64,000 nt of DNA from Bradyrhizobium sp. dw_78. GTDB taxonomy: Bacteria; Pseudomonadota; Alphaproteobacteria; Rhizobiales; Xanthobacteraceae. Positions 32,698 to 40,060 of this stretch are shown here, piece after piece. Numbering within the stretch: position 1 is the stretch's first letter; each line of letters opens with the position of its first letter. The stretch spans positions 620,001-684,000 of the forward strand of contig NZ_JAAVUS010000001.1 in NCBI RefSeq assembly GCF_018449525.1, written 5' to 3'. The notes beneath the pieces are model-generated. The model was not told the DNA's origin and did not search any database. It saw only the letters and a list, made by a program, of their open reading frames with translations. A program made the translations under genes and the position numbers.

Positions 32698-32988
32698 CTA
32701 CACCGTCTCATGCTTGCGCAGGTCGCGGGCATGATCGAAGCGGGCGGCTTGCAGGTCGGCGGTGGCCGCCGGAATTTCATCGAGCGCGATTTCGGGCAGC
32801 GCCGCCTCGGCCAGGATCTCGGCGGTGATATCGTCGACGGTGGCATCGGCGATTTCGTGTATGAAACTGATATTCCTGTATTCGCCGGAGGCGATGCGCG
32901 CGATCACGTCGCGGCGGGTGATTTCGGGATCGACAATGGCTTCGCGGCCGCGACGGCCGTAATCGATCATCACGACGAAATATTGCAA
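32698..32988 (-). CDS. Uncharacterised 96-aa protein under the S24-repressor promoter
   Basis: Product of 96 residues, no signal peptide, no family recognised. It begins QYFVVMIDYGRRGREAIVDPE, followed by a helix-rich acidic middle (ADATVDDITAEILAEAALPEIALDE) and a basic end. The start is TTG 32988 if the conserved-looking QYFVV segment is included; ATG 32970 is the alternative. Its promoter (33037-33065) carries two of the five palindromic sites of the adjacent repressor, so it is probably tightly repressed. It is the clearest regulated target outside the repressor itself. Confidence 0.7.
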   Translation of the reverse strand: MQYFVVMIDYGRRGREAIVDPEITRRDVIARIASGEYRNISFIHEIADATVDDITAEILAEAALPEIALDEIPAATADLQAARFDHARDLRKHETV

Positions 32989-33036
32989 TGAAAAGGCTCT
33001 TTCGCAGATCGGGACGAATGCTGAAATCAGGCTGGC

Positions 33037-33065
33037 ATTATTTCTGAAAAACAGAAATTTGTCAA
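33037..33065 (-). promoter_or_regulatory. Sigma70-type promoter with embedded operator
   Basis: On the minus strand TTGACA (33065-33060) and AATAAT (33042-33037) are separated by exactly 17 bp. Operator O1 fills most of that spacer, so repressor binding would exclude RNA polymerase. It drives the 96-aa gene with a leader of about 40 nt. Confidence 0.8.
33042..33056. promoter_or_regulatory. Operator O1
   Basis: The 15-bp palindrome TTCTGAAAAACAGAA lies between the -35 and -10 boxes of the 96-aa gene promoter. It shares the TTCTGA...CAGAA plan with O2-O5. Confidence 0.75.
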
Positions 33066-33072
33066 GCGTAAT

Positions 33073-33087
33073 TTCTGATAATCAGAA
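33073..33087. promoter_or_regulatory. Operator O2
   Basis: TTCTGATAATCAGAA is a perfect palindrome around one central base, just upstream of the -35 box. It is 31 bp from O1 centre to centre, about three helical turns, which suits cooperative dimers. Confidence 0.78.
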
Positions 33088-33143
33088 GTAATTCTGGGCG
33101 GGCTTCCGCTCCTGCGAGGAGGGGCCCGAATCGCCGTCCGCGA

Positions 33144-33767
33144 TTATTTGGTCCCGTCCTTGGCCGCCTTGCGTGTCCTGGCTGCGGCCCTGGCCCGCAA
33201 CCGCTCGATCTGGCCCCTCGGCAGGGTGACGCAGATTTCGCCGATCCATTCCAGTTTCACGCCCGTGATCGGCTTGGCGTTGAAGCTGGTGAGGTTGACG
33301 ACGGAAGCTGACTTGCCGCGTTCGATCGTCTTCAGATAGCGCTCGCCGGTCTTCAGCCGCACCGCAGCCTCTTCGCCATAGAAGCTGGAGAGCGGGTGGC
33401 GCTGCTCGCGATAGACCACGATGATGTCGCCATTTTCGTACTTCGGCAGCATGGAATCGCCGGAAACCTCGAAGGCGATGGTTTCCTCCGCGATCGGGAA
33501 CGGCAGTTCCACCTCGCCGAGCCCTTCCGGCGGCACCTGCTCGTGCTCCGGCTCGATCGAGGCGCCGGCGCCGACGCGGCCCATGATCGGCACCGAATTC
33601 AGTTCGAGATAGTCGATGATATCGGTGATTTCGGCGGCCTTGATCAGGCGGATGCCCGAGAGGATTTCGGAGACGGCACCGGGGCGCACACCCATGGCGG
33701 CGGCCAGCCCGCCCTTGGTCTTGCCCGGCTTCGCCAGCCCGCGTTCGATCAACCTGATGTCCAGCAT
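33144..33767 (-). CDS. LexA/CI-like S24 transcriptional repressor
   Basis: A 207-residue regulator with an N-terminal Cro/CI-type HTH (about 12-50, GGLAAAMGVRPGAVSEILSG) and a C-terminal S24 peptidase-like domain. Ser105 lies in VSGDSMLPKYENGD and Lys139 in VRLKTG, the serine-lysine pair of LexA and CI. A68-type Ala-Gly site occurs at VGAGAS (Ala67-Gly68), where self-cleavage would separate the domains. A basic tail (about 185-207) is extra. Such repressors are inactivated by RecA filaments after DNA damage; this is inferred here. Three operators lie upstream of its own promoter, so it should repress itself. Confidence 0.88.
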   Translation of the reverse strand: MLDIRLIERGLAKPGKTKGGLAAAMGVRPGAVSEILSGIRLIKAAEITDIIDYLELNSVPIMGRVGAGASIEPEHEQVPPEGLGEVELPFPIAEETIAFEVSGDSMLPKYENGDIIVVYREQRHPLSSFYGEEAAVRLKTGERYLKTIERGKSASVVNLTSFNAKPITGVKLEWIGEICVTLPRGQIERLRARAAARTRKAAKDGTK

Positions 33768-33777
33768 ATGCCACGCT

Positions 33778-33792
33778 TTCCGAATTTCAGAA
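33778..33792. promoter_or_regulatory. Operator O3
   Basis: TTCCGAATTTCAGAA sits 11 bp upstream of the repressor start codon, just after its -10 box; imperfect palindrome of the same class as O1, O2, O4 and O5. Confidence 0.7.
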
Positions 33793-33822
33793 ATGATAGC
33801 AATTCCGATTATCAGAAATCAA
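33793..33822 (-). promoter_or_regulatory. Promoter of the repressor gene
   Basis: On the minus strand TTGATT (33822-33817) and TATCAT (33798-33793) are spaced by 18 bp, with operator O4 between them. This arrangement predicts autorepression. Confidence 0.6.
33803..33817. promoter_or_regulatory. Operator O4
   Basis: TTCCGATTATCAGAA, in the spacer of the repressor promoter, 25 bp from O3 centre to centre. Confidence 0.75.
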
Positions 33823-33835
33823 GCTTGACTTTGAT

Positions 33836-33850
33836 TTCGGAATATCAGAA
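33836..33850. promoter_or_regulatory. Operator O5
   Basis: TTCGGAATATCAGAA lies on the side of the GcrA-like gene. A TTGACT at 33825-33830 precedes it as a possible -35 box for the plus strand, though the matching -10 box is weak. Binding here would repress the rightward gene set. Confidence 0.7.
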
Positions 33851-33893
33851 ATTACTGACGGCGCCGGGCGGCGACAAAAGAGCAGGGAAAATA

Positions 33894-34424
33894 ATGGAAC
33901 CGACCAACTGGGCGCCCGAGCATTCGGACGCGCTGCGGGACTATCTTGCCCTCGGCATGTCCTATGCGGAGATCGCGCGCGCGATCAACGCCAAATTCAA
34001 CACCAGCTATTCCCGCAACGCCACGATCGGCCGCGCCAGGCGGATGGGGCTTGCCGGCGACGACCGTCCGAAGGATTGGGCGCAACTGGCGCCGAAATCC
34101 CGGCAGGCAGGTCTCCACCGATTGAGCGAGCGCTACGACGCCATGTCAAAATGGTTCGTGCCGGCCTTCGAGCCTGTCCCGCTGCCAAAGCTGCGCTGCG
34201 TCGCGATCGAGCCGCGCCATCTGTCGCTGCTCGAACTCGAGCCCGGCGATTGCCGCTACCCCTATGGCGGCGACGAAGAAGGTGAGCCCATCACCTTCTG
34301 CGGCCATAAGCAGCGCGAGGAGTCGAGCTATTGCATGGCGCATTTTCATTTGACTTGCGGCGTCGATGCGGAGCCGGAACGCTGCGTTGGCACGGCGCTG
34401 CTCGGGATCGTGGAGGCAGCATGA
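33894..34424 (+). CDS. GcrA-family regulator-like protein
   Basis: Product of 176 residues. The N-terminus has the GcrA-type HTH (NWAPEHSDALRDYLALGMSYAEIARAINAKF, with SRNATIGRARRMGL after it). The C-terminus has the GcrA ending with paired Cys/His (GDCRYPYG, ITFCGHK, SSYCMAHF). GcrA binds sigma70 and methylated promoters to control the cell cycle in Alphaproteobacteria. This copy sits in an accessory cassette and is probably a phage- or cassette-borne relative, not the housekeeping protein. AGGGAAA precedes ATG 33894. It is divergent from the S24 repressor and shares its operator region. Confidence 0.85.
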   Translation: MEPTNWAPEHSDALRDYLALGMSYAEIARAINAKFNTSYSRNATIGRARRMGLAGDDRPKDWAQLAPKSRQAGLHRLSERYDAMSKWFVPAFEPVPLPKLRCVAIEPRHLSLLELEPGDCRYPYGGDEEGEPITFCGHKQREESSYCMAHFHLTCGVDAEPERCVGTALLGIVEAA

Positions 34425-34618
34425 GATGTCAGGTGAACTGGACGCCGATTGAAGTCATGGCGCAACGGATGAAGCCGCTGCCACGCCGGCATCGCATCGC
34501 GCATTTGCGCGCGCTGATTGGGCGAGAGCCGCCCGACTCCACGCGATCGCGCGAACTCGCTGCATGGCTGCGCGACGAAATGACGGCGCTAGCCGGCGAG
34601 GGGGGCCGTCTTCCATGA
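34421..34618 (+). CDS. Uncharacterised 65-aa basic protein
   Basis: ATG 34421 overlaps the GcrA-like stop codon (ATGA), and its own TGA overlaps the next ATG in the same way, so it is translationally coupled on both sides. The 65 residues include WTPIEVMAQRMKPLPRRHRIAHLRALIGRE and are basic, with no membrane segment. No family recognised. Its strict placement between the GcrA-like and DUF1376 genes suggests a role tied to them. Confidence 0.7.
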   Translation: MRCQVNWTPIEVMAQRMKPLPRRHRIAHLRALIGREPPDSTRSRELAAWLRDEMTALAGEGGRLP

Positions 34619-35166
34619 ACCGTCCCTGGATGCCGCTTTATGTCGGCGACTATCTCGGCGACACCGGCCACCTCACCACCGCGCAGCATGGGGCGTATCT
34701 GCTGCTGATGATGCACTACTGGCGCAAAGGCGAGTTGCCCGACGACAACCGGCAGCTTGCCAAGATTACAAAACTGCCGCTTCGCACCTGGTGCGAATAC
34801 CGCGCCACTCTGCAGGACTTCTTTTATGAGGGATGGAAGCACAAGCGCATCGACGCCGAACTGGAAAAGATGATGCGTGTTTCCGCCAAGCGCGCGATCG
34901 CTGGGCAAAAGGGCGGTATCGGTTCAGCGCTGGCTCGCATGAAACTGGAAAACCGGGCGCAGGGGCGATCTGCGCCCGCGCGAGCAATTGCCGCGCAAAC
35001 GTTCGGCGAGGCTGCACCAGACGCCGACCACTCACACCCACACAAGAATCCTTGTTCGGATGAATCGGTGTCGGCCGAGCGGTCGGGACCGCAAGCGCGG
35101 GCGGAAAAGCCGGCGATCGCCGTCAGCGCGGAACTGGCGGCCTATGTCGCCAGGCGGACGACATGA
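34615..35166 (+). CDS. DUF1376 domain protein
   Basis: A 183-residue product starting at ATG 34615 (overlap with the preceding stop). The first 80 residues match the DUF1376 pattern: RPWMPLYVGDYLGDTGHLTTAQHGAYLLLMMHYWRKGELPDDNRQLAKI. This domain is typical of phage and prophage replication-region proteins and has a winged-helix-like character. The rest is basic, then a low-complexity tail. An NR/KR-rich stretch (SAKRAIAGQKGG) resembles the usual connector of these proteins. It supports a phage-derived origin for the cassette. Confidence 0.82.
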   Translation: MNRPWMPLYVGDYLGDTGHLTTAQHGAYLLLMMHYWRKGELPDDNRQLAKITKLPLRTWCEYRATLQDFFYEGWKHKRIDAELEKMMRVSAKRAIAGQKGGIGSALARMKLENRAQGRSAPARAIAAQTFGEAAPDADHSHPHKNPCSDESVSAERSGPQARAEKPAIAVSAELAAYVARRTT

Positions 35167-35236
35167 CGCGAACGCCCTGACGCAAACGGGGATATCGGAA
35201 TTTTCTAACGCATTTCCTTCAGGGGAGTTTTCAGAC

Positions 35237-35806
35237 ATGCCACGCGCCAAACGCTACAAACCCTATAATCCGGCCAAGGCCCATGACCGGCGATCGCGCG
35301 ATCTGCCGCGCAATGCGGAGGTCGCCTCTGTCGAGGTCGACGATCCCTTGGGCCTGGAGCCCGGTGACAAGATCGTCGCGCTGCGTTCGCTTCGCAACGA
35401 TCCCCTGGGGAAATTGCACGCGCGCCGTCAGATCGACGAGGCGCAGTATCAGGGCGGGCGTTCGTTTCAGAACGATTGGGAGAGGGCCGAGCGCGGCCCG
35501 CAGGCCGTCGATCCGTCTCGCGAATATGTCGATGGCGGGCAGTTTCGCGAGCCGATCACCGAAGGCCAGCGCAAGGCGGTGCTACGGTTGAACCGGACCG
35601 AGCGCGAACTCGGCGCCGATGGATCGGCGCTGGTGCATGAAGTGCTGATTCTGGGGCTGACGATGGAGCAGATCAGCCGCCAGCGCGGGCTGAGTGGCCA
35701 GCGCTGGCTGGATTATTTCGCGCGGCGATTCCGCGAATGCCTCGACCGGCTGGCGCTGATCTACGGGTTTGCGACCGAAAAGCCGCGTTCGCCGCCGGTG
35801 GGATGA
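35237..35806 (+). CDS. Uncharacterised 189-aa protein with HTH-like C-terminus
   Basis: Starts at ATG 35237 with AGGGGAGTTTTCAGAC upstream. The N-terminal half is polar, basic and probably disordered. The C-terminal part (about 112-180) is helical: LNRTERELGADGSALVHEVLILGLTMEQISRQRGLSGQRWLDYFARRFRECLDRL reads like a helix-turn-helix region as in sigma-like or DUF6456-type proteins; this is a loose impression. It follows the DUF1376 gene by 70 bp on the same strand and closes the cassette. Confidence 0.7.
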   Translation: MPRAKRYKPYNPAKAHDRRSRDLPRNAEVASVEVDDPLGLEPGDKIVALRSLRNDPLGKLHARRQIDEAQYQGGRSFQNDWERAERGPQAVDPSREYVDGGQFREPITEGQRKAVLRLNRTERELGADGSALVHEVLILGLTMEQISRQRGLSGQRWLDYFARRFRECLDRLALIYGFATEKPRSPPVG

Positions 35807-38944: not shown

Positions 38945-40060
38945 ATGGCTGACTACATCCACCAACTGCCGGCCTGGCCCAACTTCATTTGGGATGAGCG
39001 CCGTCTTGCCGGACAACTCGCCGCCGTCCGGCACCGGCAGGGGCGATTGATCGGTCGCATGCAGGCGCTTGGATTTGCGCTACGCGAGGAGGCTGTCCTG
39101 CAAACGCTCACCCAAGACGTGCTCAAGTCCAGCGAGATCGAGGGCGATGTTCTGGACAAGGAGGAAGTTCGTTCCTCGATCGCGCGGCGCCTCGGCATGG
39201 AATCCGCGGGCCTGCCGCCTGCCGACCGCCATGTCGAAGGCGTGGTGGAGATGATGCTCGACGCCACCCAGAGGTTCAACGATCCTCTTACCGAGGAGCG
39301 CCTGCTGAGCTGGCATGCGTCGCTGTTTCCGACCGGGCGCAGCGGCATGCGCAGGATCATCGTCGGCGCATGGCGCGACGATCGATCGGGCCCGATGCAG
39401 GTGGTCTCCGGCGCCGAGGGGCGCGAGCGCGTTCACTATGAAGCGCCCGCCGCCGCGCGGCTCGATACGGAAATGAAGTCCTTTCTCGCCTGGTTCAACG
39501 GCGAGGACGATATCGATCCGGTGCTGAAGGCGGCGCTGGCCCATCTGCAGTTCGTGACCATCCATCCGTTCGACGACGGCAATGGCCGCATCGCTCGCGC
39601 CATCGCGGACATGTTGCTGGCCCGCTCGGAAGACAGTCCGCAACGCTTCTACAGCATGTCGGCGCAGATCAGGCTTGAGCGAAAGGCCTATTACGACATG
39701 CTGGAGTCGACGCAGAAGCGCGGTCTCGACATTACGGCGTGGATGGAATGGTTTCTCGGATGTCTCGATCGCGCTTTCGACGGCGCGGAGAAGACCCTCG
39801 CCATCGTTTTCCGAAAAGCGGAATTCTGGAACAAGCATTCGGCCGCGCCGCTCAATGAACGTCAGCGCGATATTCTCAACCGTCTGCTGGATGGTTTTGA
39901 GGGCAATCTCACCTCATCAAAATGGGCCACGATCGAGAAATGCTCGCCGGATACGGCGCTGCGCGATATCGGAGATCTGGTCCGGCGCGGATTGCTCGCA
40001 AAGAATGAAGGCGGTGGCCGCAGTACGAGCTATTCGCTGACCGGCGATCTCGCGGAATAA
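38945..40060 (+). CDS. Fic-domain AMP transferase with N-terminal DUF4172 and C-terminal winged helix
   Basis: A 371-residue Fic protein. The catalytic motif HPFDDGNGR is intact at 207-215, so it should transfer AMP to a target hydroxyl. An inhibitory motif SSEIEG (62-67, pattern S/TxxxEG) lies N-terminally in the same chain, as in class II Fic proteins whose activity is held back by Glu66. The first 90 residues match the DUF4172 type (PAWPNFIWDERRLAGQL). The end (about 300-360) is a winged-helix-like region (ERQRDILNRLLDGF...SPDTALRDIGDLVRRG) that could bind the two inverted repeats upstream. The target is unknown. Confidence 0.9.
   Translation: MADYIHQLPAWPNFIWDERRLAGQLAAVRHRQGRLIGRMQALGFALREEAVLQTLTQDVLKSSEIEGDVLDKEEVRSSIARRLGMESAGLPPADRHVEGVVEMMLDATQRFNDPLTEERLLSWHASLFPTGRSGMRRIIVGAWRDDRSGPMQVVSGAEGRERVHYEAPAAARLDTEMKSFLAWFNGEDDIDPVLKAALAHLQFVTIHPFDDGNGRIARAIADMLLARSEDSPQRFYSMSAQIRLERKAYYDMLESTQKRGLDITAWMEWFLGCLDRAFDGAEKTLAIVFRKAEFWNKHSAAPLNERQRDILNRLLDGFEGNLTSSKWATIEKCSPDTALRDIGDLVRRGLLAKNEGGGRSTSYSLTGDLAE

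What the first reader, a model, noticed from the sequence alone, without database searches (positions are those of the whole stretch)
32698..35806. Compact S24-repressor cassette with five shared operators and an unstudied target set
Seen: five 15-bp sites on the plan TTCYGA...TCAGAA (33042, 33073, 33778, 33803, 33836) fall in three promoters: that of a 96-aa unknown gene, the repressor's own, and the divergent GcrA-like gene set (GcrA-like, 65-aa, DUF1376, 189-aa). Known: S24 repressors with the Ser-Lys pair and an Ala-Gly site are cleaved in the SOS response. Inferred: a small domesticated phage-like switch that, on DNA damage, turns on a GcrA-like sigma70 partner and a DUF1376 protein. No integrase, capsid or lysis genes are present, so it is either a remnant or a functional non-phage module.
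Basis: partly seen in the sequence, partly recalled or inferred. Interest (0 to 1): 0.8.

Follow-up and report, generated by a model that had tools for sequence, protein, structure and literature searches.

The report
Domesticated phage switch in Bradyrhizobium
This is a small block of genes kept across the root-nodule bacterium genus Bradyrhizobium, likely the leftover control region of a virus, in which a repressor is predicted to hold two likely gene activators off until DNA is damaged; a similar switch controls gene-swapping virus-like particles in a related bacterium, but here the genes it would turn on are unknown.

Summary
All hits to the reported plan with at most one mismatch in the 64-kb window fall on the five reported sites. 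Across 99 distinct Bradyrhizobium-type loci at least one site is kept at the o96 promoter in 91 and at the repressor/GcrA promoter in 98, and the genes are under purifying selection (dN/dS 0.13-0.18; GcrA-like 0.39). So it is a maintained module, not a decaying remnant. The conserved core is o96, S24 repressor, GcrA-like and the 189-aa gene; DUF1376 is found in only 7 of 99. The key addition is the 189-aa protein: it belongs, narrowly, to DUF6456, the family of the gene-transfer-agent activators GafA/GafZ, and in phages its relatives sit just before terminase. A Bradyrhizobium phage has o96, o65, DUF1376 and DUF6456 homologues in the same order, with a DnaA-type (GafY-like) gene where the module has GcrA-like; a sister module in another genus has that too. 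Best reading: a domesticated phage switch wired like Caulobacter RogA-gafYZ, but with a GcrA-like partner and an apparently intact S24 cleavage apparatus. No GTA marker, HK97 capsid or portal gene was found in the own genome, so the target is unknown. SOS cleavage is predicted, not shown.

The parts
32698..32988 (-). o96: conserved 91-96-aa protein of unknown function, behind its own operator-bearing promoter (TTG start in the window; ATG in 89 of the 99 loci)
   Evidence: phage homologue 53% identical in ppBeUSDA76-2; no Pfam/PHROG/PADLOC match
33037..33065 (-). o96 promoter-like TTGACA-17-AATAAT
   Evidence: 11 of 12 consensus positions
33042..33056 (.). operator 1, over the o96 promoter spacer
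33073..33087 (.). operator 2, 7 bp upstream of the o96 -35 box
33144..33767 (-). S24/LexA-type repressor (HTH + Peptidase_S24; A67-G68, S105, K146)
33778..33792 (.). operator 3, directly downstream of the repressor -10
33793..33822 (-). repressor promoter-like TTGATT-18-TATCAT with TG before the -10
   Evidence: 9 of 12 consensus positions
33803..33817 (.). operator 4, over the repressor promoter spacer
33825..33830 (+). GcrA-side -35-like TTGACT (weak -10)
   Evidence: TTGAC then operator within 10 nt in 74 of 95 loci
33836..33850 (.). operator 5, 5 bp downstream of the GcrA-side -35
33894..34424 (+). GcrA-like protein: both ends of GcrA kept, linker variable
   Evidence: PF07750, 1.1e-32; profile match to C. 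crescentus GcrA structures; 95 of 99 loci
34421..34618 (+). o65, accessory small protein (phage homologue 47% identical)
   Evidence: detected in 22 of 99
34615..35166 (+). DUF1376 / phage primosomal-type protein, accessory
   Evidence: 7 of 99; 68% identical over 102 residues to the phage copy
35237..35806 (+). o189: DUF6456 (GafA/GafZ-type) late-activator-like protein
   Evidence: searches (6.2e-06, 26.8 bits against cut-off 26.3; phrog_21451), profile-profile with canonical GafZ, 94 of 99 loci

Best explanation
This is a cassette conserved across Bradyrhizobium, likely the domesticated control region of a temperate phage, in which an S24 repressor with an intact cleavage motif is predicted to repress itself, o96 and a divergent operon encoding a GcrA-like and a DUF6456 (GafZ-type) protein, and would release them when RecA triggers its self-cleavage. 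Shown here: gene order, operators, their conservation, purifying selection, the DUF6456 and GcrA family matches, and colinear phage relatives. Inferred: that the repressor binds these operators; that it is cleaved on DNA damage; that GcrA-like (contacting sigma70) and o189 (initiation or anti-termination, by analogy with GafZ) act as a pair, with GcrA-like in the position that a GafY-like DnaA-type protein holds in phages and in a sister module. Not known: what the pair switches on; no RcGTA-type marker, HK97 capsid or portal gene was found in the own genome.
For: Close repressor orthologue in 34 of 36 same-genus genomes and 0 of 24 others of the order. Core order o96-REP-GcrA-(..)-o189 and operators kept over 99 distinct loci: o96 99, REP 99, GcrA 95, o189 94; operator sites 91 and 98 of 99. 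dN/dS medians REP 0.134, o96 0.178, o189 0.179, GcrA 0.387. A67-G68, S105, K146 invariant in 99 of 99. DUF6456 occurs in two papers of the library, both on gene transfer agents and both for GafA; o189 vs canonical GafZ profiles: 118 columns, E 3.4e-05, probability 72%; among the five best viral structure matches the two with a family name are DUF6456. Phage ppBeUSDA76-2: o96, DnaA_C (GafY-like), o65, DUF1376, DUF6456, TerL in that order. A Pseudochrobactrum plasmid prophage: S24 peptidase, DUF1376, a DNA-replication-type HTH gene, o189 relative (31%), terminase. Of 22 o189-bearing viral contigs, 8 also show the GafY-like gene upstream of o189. Sister module in genus g116 (L315): S24 repressor 55% identical, DnaA_C protein, o189 relative 47% identical. 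GcrA profile hits both short structures of C. crescentus GcrA, N- and C-terminal. Literature: RogA represses gafYZ (passages of PMC9632790, PMC11150451).
Against: No expression, binding or cleavage data. The DUF6456 match is weak (6.2e-06; hhalign probability only 72%), and the sister module's o189 is below cut-off; PDB fold matches to sigma region 4 and Q21 all have E above 0.5 and the model is mediocre (pLDDT 65.7). No downstream target: GTA_TIM in 3 of 40 genus genomes and not in the own one, HK97 capsid and portal not in the own one; other capsid types were not searched. In 4 of 98 untruncated loci o189 is missing (in 3 of these GcrA too), 2 with a large recombinase-like ORF there; 6 of 99 o96 and 2 of 95 GcrA-like readings are short. 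The repressor itself has no close relative in a phage with this layout: nearest phage repressors are 42% identical (Microcystis phages). GcrA-like evolves fast. RogA is reported to lack the catalytic residues that are complete here (PMC9632790).
Confidence: 0.7

Rival explanations
1. The cassette is a co-opted DNA-damage regulator acting on host functions, like FddR in Francisella: o96 and GcrA-like are the outputs and o189 has been reused; no phage-like late genes are involved.
For: Same layout as FddR (co-opted phage S24 repressor, genus-wide, self plus divergent genes; abstract of PMC13148647). No RcGTA marker, HK97 capsid or portal in the own genome. o96 found in 99 of 99 loci, also where GcrA-like or o189 is missing.
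Against: o189 is as constrained as o96 (dN/dS 0.179 vs 0.178) and its family's known members act on GTA genes.
Confidence: 0.3
2. Superinfection immunity: the repressor is kept because it silences incoming phages that share its operators.
For: Phages with o96, o189 and DUF1376 homologues exist, one from B. elkanii.
Against: In the 26.5 kb of ppBeUSDA76-2 examined there are no such operators above chance (6 hits, all 2 mismatches, 3.9 expected); the only viral-collection contig with a close repressor relative is 4.5 kb and ends in an ORF that looks, by eye, like a bacterial ABC transporter; no PADLOC match for 5 proteins; does not explain conservation of GcrA-like and o189.
Confidence: 0.12
3. 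A decaying prophage remnant whose conservation only reflects common descent.
For: No recognised integration or virion genes nearby; 4 of 98 untruncated loci have lost o189, 3 of them GcrA-like too.
Against: Purifying selection on four genes and operators conserved far above flanks.
Confidence: 0.05
4. A still-mobile satellite that uses a helper phage.
For: The same quinone-oxidoreductase gene lies in the fetched stretch in only 27 of 99 loci (some contigs are short), so the module has moved or been moved.
Against: No integrase recognised; on phage records the best relatives are 49% (o189) and 42% (repressor), on plasmid records 31% (o189; the repressor was not searched there); repressor distances track those of the neighbouring gene (Spearman 0.82 over 27). 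Ends such as direct repeats were not looked for.
Confidence: 0.04

Closest known systems
RogA-gafYZ circuit of Caulobacter crescentus (GTA control)
   Same: LexA-like S24-domain repressor controlling a sigma70-contacting activator plus GafZ (passages of PMC9632790, PMC11150451); GafZ corresponds to the GafA C-terminal part, whose relatives are annotated DUF6456 (PMC9638019)
   Different: Here repressor and targets are adjacent and divergent, the partner is GcrA-like instead of DnaA-type GafY, the S24 catalytic and cleavage residues are complete, an extra operator-bearing gene (o96) is present, and no RcGTA cluster marker is in the own genome
Control region of Bradyrhizobium phage ppBeUSDA76-2 (OP596614.1)
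   Same: o96, o65, DUF1376 and DUF6456 homologues in the same order
   Different: Phage has a DnaA_C gene in the GcrA position, no repressor relative found by tblastn, none of these operators above chance in the stretch read, and terminase and tail-fibre genes beyond
FddR of Francisella
   Same: Genus-wide co-opted phage S24 repressor acting on itself and divergent genes (abstract of PMC13148647)
   Different: Different operator (GTG-N11-CAC) and no GcrA/DUF6456 pair mentioned in the abstract
GcrA cell-cycle regulator
   Same: Both ends recognisable
   Different: Not the cell-cycle orthologue: NCBIfam score 39 against cut-off 280; two other GcrA genes in the genome score higher (200 and 154 bits against 114)

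Membership tests
RogA-gafYZ type GTA control circuit | S24/LexA-like repressor with N-terminal HTH | tested here: met
   (S24 over cut-off; HTH_3 just under its cut-off)
RogA-gafYZ type GTA control circuit | repressor controls a DUF6456 (GafZ-type) gene | tested here: inconclusive
   gene and upstream operators present; binding and repression not testable
RogA-gafYZ type GTA control circuit | DnaA-type GafY partner | tested here: not met
   own genome has only one Bac_DnaA_C match, in a 528-aa frame, presumably dnaA; GcrA-like in that position; met in phages and in sister module L315
RogA-gafYZ type GTA control circuit | RcGTA-like head-tail cluster in the genome | tested here: not met
   GTA_TIM, HK97 capsid and portal families: 0 matches in own genome
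SOS-cleaved S24 repressors (LexA/CI/UmuD type) | Ala-Gly site, catalytic Ser and Lys | tested here: met
   A67-G68, S105, K146 in 99 of 99; which residues are catalytic is from recall of LexA/CI
SOS-cleaved S24 repressors (LexA/CI/UmuD type) | RecA-dependent self-cleavage | not testable with these tools
   needs an experiment
GcrA cell-cycle regulator | GcrA family (Pfam) | tested here: met
   114 bits against cut-off 26.9
GcrA cell-cycle regulator | NCBIfam equivalog level | tested here: not met
   39.1 bits against 280
DUF6456 (GafA C-terminal/GafZ family) | Pfam PF20057 over cut-off | tested here: met
   26.8 against 26.3; most of the 120 listed relatives carry PF20057; margin is narrow, and in 21 of 40 genus genomes no match reaches the cut-off
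Intact prophage | integrase, terminase, capsid nearby | tested here: not met

The most novel reading that the evidence does not exclude
Bradyrhizobium, which appears to have lost the ancestral GTA and its canonical GafZ, keeps an independent DNA-damage-inducible GTA-style master switch in which a GcrA-like protein replaced GafY as the sigma70 partner of a GafZ-type anti-terminator, and this GcrA-GafZ pair drives an unrecognised dispersed particle or lysis programme, perhaps the host-DNA-packaging particles reported from B. japonicum S06B.
Probability: 0.15. Interest if true: 0.85.

Novelty: new variant of a known kind. Interest (0 to 1): 0.6.

Why it matters
Co-opted phage repressors and GTA master switches are each known, but a genus-wide free-standing switch that pairs a GcrA-like sigma70 partner with a GafZ-type protein under a potentially self-cleaving repressor did not appear in the listings of the paper searches made. 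It gives a direct test of what remains of GTA control after the GTA is lost, and of whether DNA damage can trigger such a switch, in a genus of nitrogen-fixing symbionts of crops.

Tried and rejected
Repressor regulon elsewhere in the own genome: with one mismatch allowed the pattern gives 23 forward and 25 reverse hits against 10 and 6 for the reversed-pattern control; the only other site pair noticed (C12:649582/649694) is a longer GTTC...GAAC palindrome near metabolic genes and was read, unproven, as another regulator's operator.

Canonical GTA activator elsewhere in the own genome: no second DUF6456 match. Anti-phage system: no PADLOC match for five proteins. PDB relatives of the repressor by sequence: none at E 0.01. 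o96 fold: no match below E 0.001. LexA boxes GTTCN7GTTC (motif recalled): none in the window. Rejected as core: DUF1376 and o65. A suspected very large insertion between GcrA-like and o189 in G010 was wrong: the distant DUF6456 gene there belongs to prophage genes identical to ppBeUSDA76-2, and the module's o189 is replaced by a recombinase gene.

Not done: species tree from housekeeping genes; search for other capsid types; search for o189 or GcrA-like binding sites; search for the ends of the module.
Full report
What is there. They lie in two intergenic stretches that serve three transcription units: o96 (32698-32988, -), the S24 repressor (33144-33767, -) and the divergent GcrA-like operon (33894-35806, +). 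Operators 1 and 4 cover the spacers of the o96 promoter (TTGACA-17-AATAAT) and the repressor promoter (TTGATT-18-TATCAT, TG before the -10), each reaching one base into a hexamer; a GcrA-side TTGACT stands 5 bp before operator 5, with a weak -10 that the scan did not report.

Conservation. A close repressor orthologue was found in 34 of 36 genomes of the genus, own included, and in none of 24 others of the order (the two misses, G016 and G033, are assemblies in about 720 and 1000 contigs). In a family-wide sample 13 of 148 genomes had a match at E <= 1e-30, 11 in this genus and 2 in one other genus, g116 (unlisted rows hide how many of the 148 were of this genus). A scan of GTDB contigs gave 77 loci, mostly titled Bradyrhizobium, the rest MAGs with other titles. 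That the genus is Bradyrhizobium follows from nine G-handle loci being identical, over an 800-base stretch around the repressor, to loci of that scan, 7 of the 9 titled Bradyrhizobium. I used 99 distinct loci: the window, 33 G-handle loci and 65 of the 77 (3 dropped because the best match did not begin within the first 20 residues, 9 duplicates; one distant S24 locus, L087, was also left out). At least one operator (<= 1 mismatch to TTCYGANNNTCRGAA) is present in the o96 promoter region in 91 of 99 and in the repressor/GcrA region in 98 of 99, with 8 other sites in 1.53 Mb. Identity to the window inside operators is 0.88 against 0.62 outside (66 rows of suitable length) and 0.80 against 0.32 (95 rows). 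Promoter geometry is less uniform: a TTGAC followed by an operator in 53 of 99 for o96 and in 74 of 95 for GcrA-like, TTGA plus operator in 40 of 95 for the repressor.

Selection and composition. Median dN/dS over sampled pairs with dS between 0.05 and 1 is 0.134 (repressor, 1284 of 1500 pairs), 0.178 (o96, 646 of 1500), 0.179 (o189, 713 of 1500) and 0.387 (GcrA-like, 380 of 1500). o96 is found in 99, the repressor in 99, GcrA-like in 95 and o189 in 94 of 99; o65 is detected in 22 and DUF1376 in 7. Six o96 readings are shorter than 88 aa and two GcrA-like readings shorter than 160 aa; I did not resolve whether these are frameshifts. One of the gaps, L204, is a contig end. In L067 and L195 a large recombinase-like ORF stands there (L067: PF07508 and PF00239; in L067 it replaces o189), and L174 and L191 have other ORFs.

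The 189-aa protein. It matches Pfam DUF6456 just above cut-off and PHROG 21451; in 21 of 40 genus genomes no DUF6456 match reaches the cut-off. In the library searched, DUF6456 is named in two papers only, both on gene transfer agents (passages read): GafA homologues are annotated DUF6456, and in Hyphomicrobiales the C-terminal part is usually a separate gene behind a small DnaA-like gene. Caulobacter GafY and GafZ correspond to the two parts; GafY contacts RpoD and GafZ is an anti-terminator, and RogA, a LexA-like repressor, represses gafYZ (passages of PMC9632790 and PMC11150451). In the order, 101 of 120 genomes have a DUF6456 match, most of them far stronger (E 1e-25 or better), but the window's genome has only o189, and in 40 genus genomes the best match is 2.3e-13. 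Profile against profile, o189 (14 rows) and the canonical family (22 rows) align over 118 columns at E 3.4e-05 and probability 72%. An AlphaFold model is mediocre (pLDDT 65.7); among its five best viral matches the two with a family name are DUF6456, and weak PDB matches include sigma region 4 domains and, far down, Q21.

Phage origin. Bradyrhizobium phage ppBeUSDA76-2 is the only one of 50,697 phage records with an o189 relative at E 0.01. It carries homologues of o96 (53%), o65 (47%), DUF1376 (68% over 102 residues) and o189 (49%) in the same order, then terminase. Where the module has GcrA-like, the phage has a DnaA_C protein (PF08299, 6.2e-28), that is, a GafY-like gene overlapping o65 by four bases just as GcrA-like does. 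No repressor relative was found there by tblastn, and none of these operators above chance in the 26.5 kb read. The nearest phage repressors are 42% identical, in two Microcystis phages, without the rest of the layout, though one has a DUF1376 gene. A prophage-like stretch on a Pseudochrobactrum plasmid has S24 peptidase, DnaB, DUF1376, a replication-type HTH gene, an o189 relative (31%) and terminase. Of 22 viral contigs with o189 relatives, 8 show the GafY-like gene by BLAST and none GcrA-like; of 16 with o96 relatives, 7 show GcrA-like. A genome of another genus in the family (G242, L315) has a sister cassette: repressor 55% identical, a small ORF that looks Cro-like by eye, a DnaA_C protein (5.1e-27), a further ORF without Pfam match, and an o189 relative (47%; DUF6456 below cut-off), with flanking ORFs that look chromosomal by eye.

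Mechanism proposed. Shown: the parts, their order and their conservation. Inferred: the repressor sits on the operators and shuts all three promoters, including its own; RecA-stimulated cleavage between A67 and G68 by S105/K146, all invariant in 99 of 99, frees them; GcrA-like and o189 then work as a pair, GcrA-like bringing sigma70 polymerase and o189 acting like GafZ. GcrA-like matches the full-length, the N-terminal and the C-terminal structures of C. crescentus GcrA (that these are the DNA-binding and sigma-interacting domains is from recall), is not the cell-cycle orthologue, and its linker is variable. What they switch on is unknown. The GTA marker GTA_TIM is in 3 of 40 genus genomes, one of them an 80%-complete assembly and two weak, and not in the own one; HK97 capsid and portal families are each in 12 of 40 and not in the own one. 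For 49 neighbouring window ORFs (of 55 picked by a composition script, module and overlapping frames left out) no family named integrase, capsid, terminase or tail was listed (25 of 27 families shown, many without a named function).

Mobility. The same oxidoreductase gene (QOR) lies in the fetched stretch in 27 of 99 loci, including the window, its nearest relative and the most distant clade; repressor distances follow those of that gene (Spearman 0.82), of o189 (0.78) and of GcrA-like (0.74), less so o96 (0.51). This fits mostly vertical descent with relocation in part of the genus; no species tree was made.

Comparison with the known. It works like RogA-gafYZ but differs in three features here: GafY partner, RcGTA cluster, and the reported lack of catalytic residues in RogA. 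It resembles FddR, a co-opted phage S24 repressor kept across Francisella that acts on itself and divergent genes (abstract only, PMC13148647). It is therefore filed as a new variant of a known kind. A Bradyrhizobium japonicum strain, S06B, is reported to release particles whose DNA maps evenly over the genome, which its authors compare with GTAs (passages of PMC10127595); any link to this module is speculation.

Noticed in passing
G020, G175, G062, G172, G025, G063, G179, G032; L253-L276: In 8 of 60 genus genomes the exact operator TTCYGAWWWTCRGAA occurs 12 to 50 times. Where looked at (G172, G175, G025) it lies in dispersed repeats: in G172 11 of 12 fetched copies (of 17) have TTGACA just before it, and in 400 kb of G175 3 of 4 repeat anchors carry a perfect site. 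Some resemble the o96 promoter (operator, 7 bp, TTGAC). They could widen the repressor's reach in those species or be look-alikes.
   Followed up: partly
L067:9353-10975 and the GcrA/o189 place of L195: A large recombinase gene (resolvase + recombinase domains in L067) has replaced o189 in one relative and a similar-looking ORF stands in the same place in another: the module is hit by integrative elements.
   Followed up: partly
L315:9282-12196: Sister module in another genus of the family with a DnaA-type (GafY-like) gene in the GcrA position and a small ORF that looks Cro-like next to the repressor.
   Followed up: yes
L212:1789-2037: An ORF that looks Cro-like (no Pfam match) lies between repressor and GcrA-like in a 4.5-kb contig filed as viral, whose end looks like a bacterial ABC-transporter ORF.
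   Followed up: partly
G000:C12:649582-649708 (L053): Two operator-like palindromes extended to GTTC...GAAC near metabolic genes; probably another regulator.
   Followed up: partly
L317 and L318: Two module-bearing genomes also carry separate prophage genes of this family: G010 holds the DnaA_C gene and TerL of ppBeUSDA76-2 at 100% identity; G020 has an o189 relative 57% identical near TerL.
   Followed up: partly
G035:C186:1649-2557: A full-strength GTA_TIM gene in one 80%-complete same-genus assembly, while no other of the 40 has a strong match: contamination or a genuine exception.
   Followed up: no
window 38945-40060: A 371-aa protein that looks like a Fic-domain protein (named by eye, no family reported for it in my calls).
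   Followed up: no
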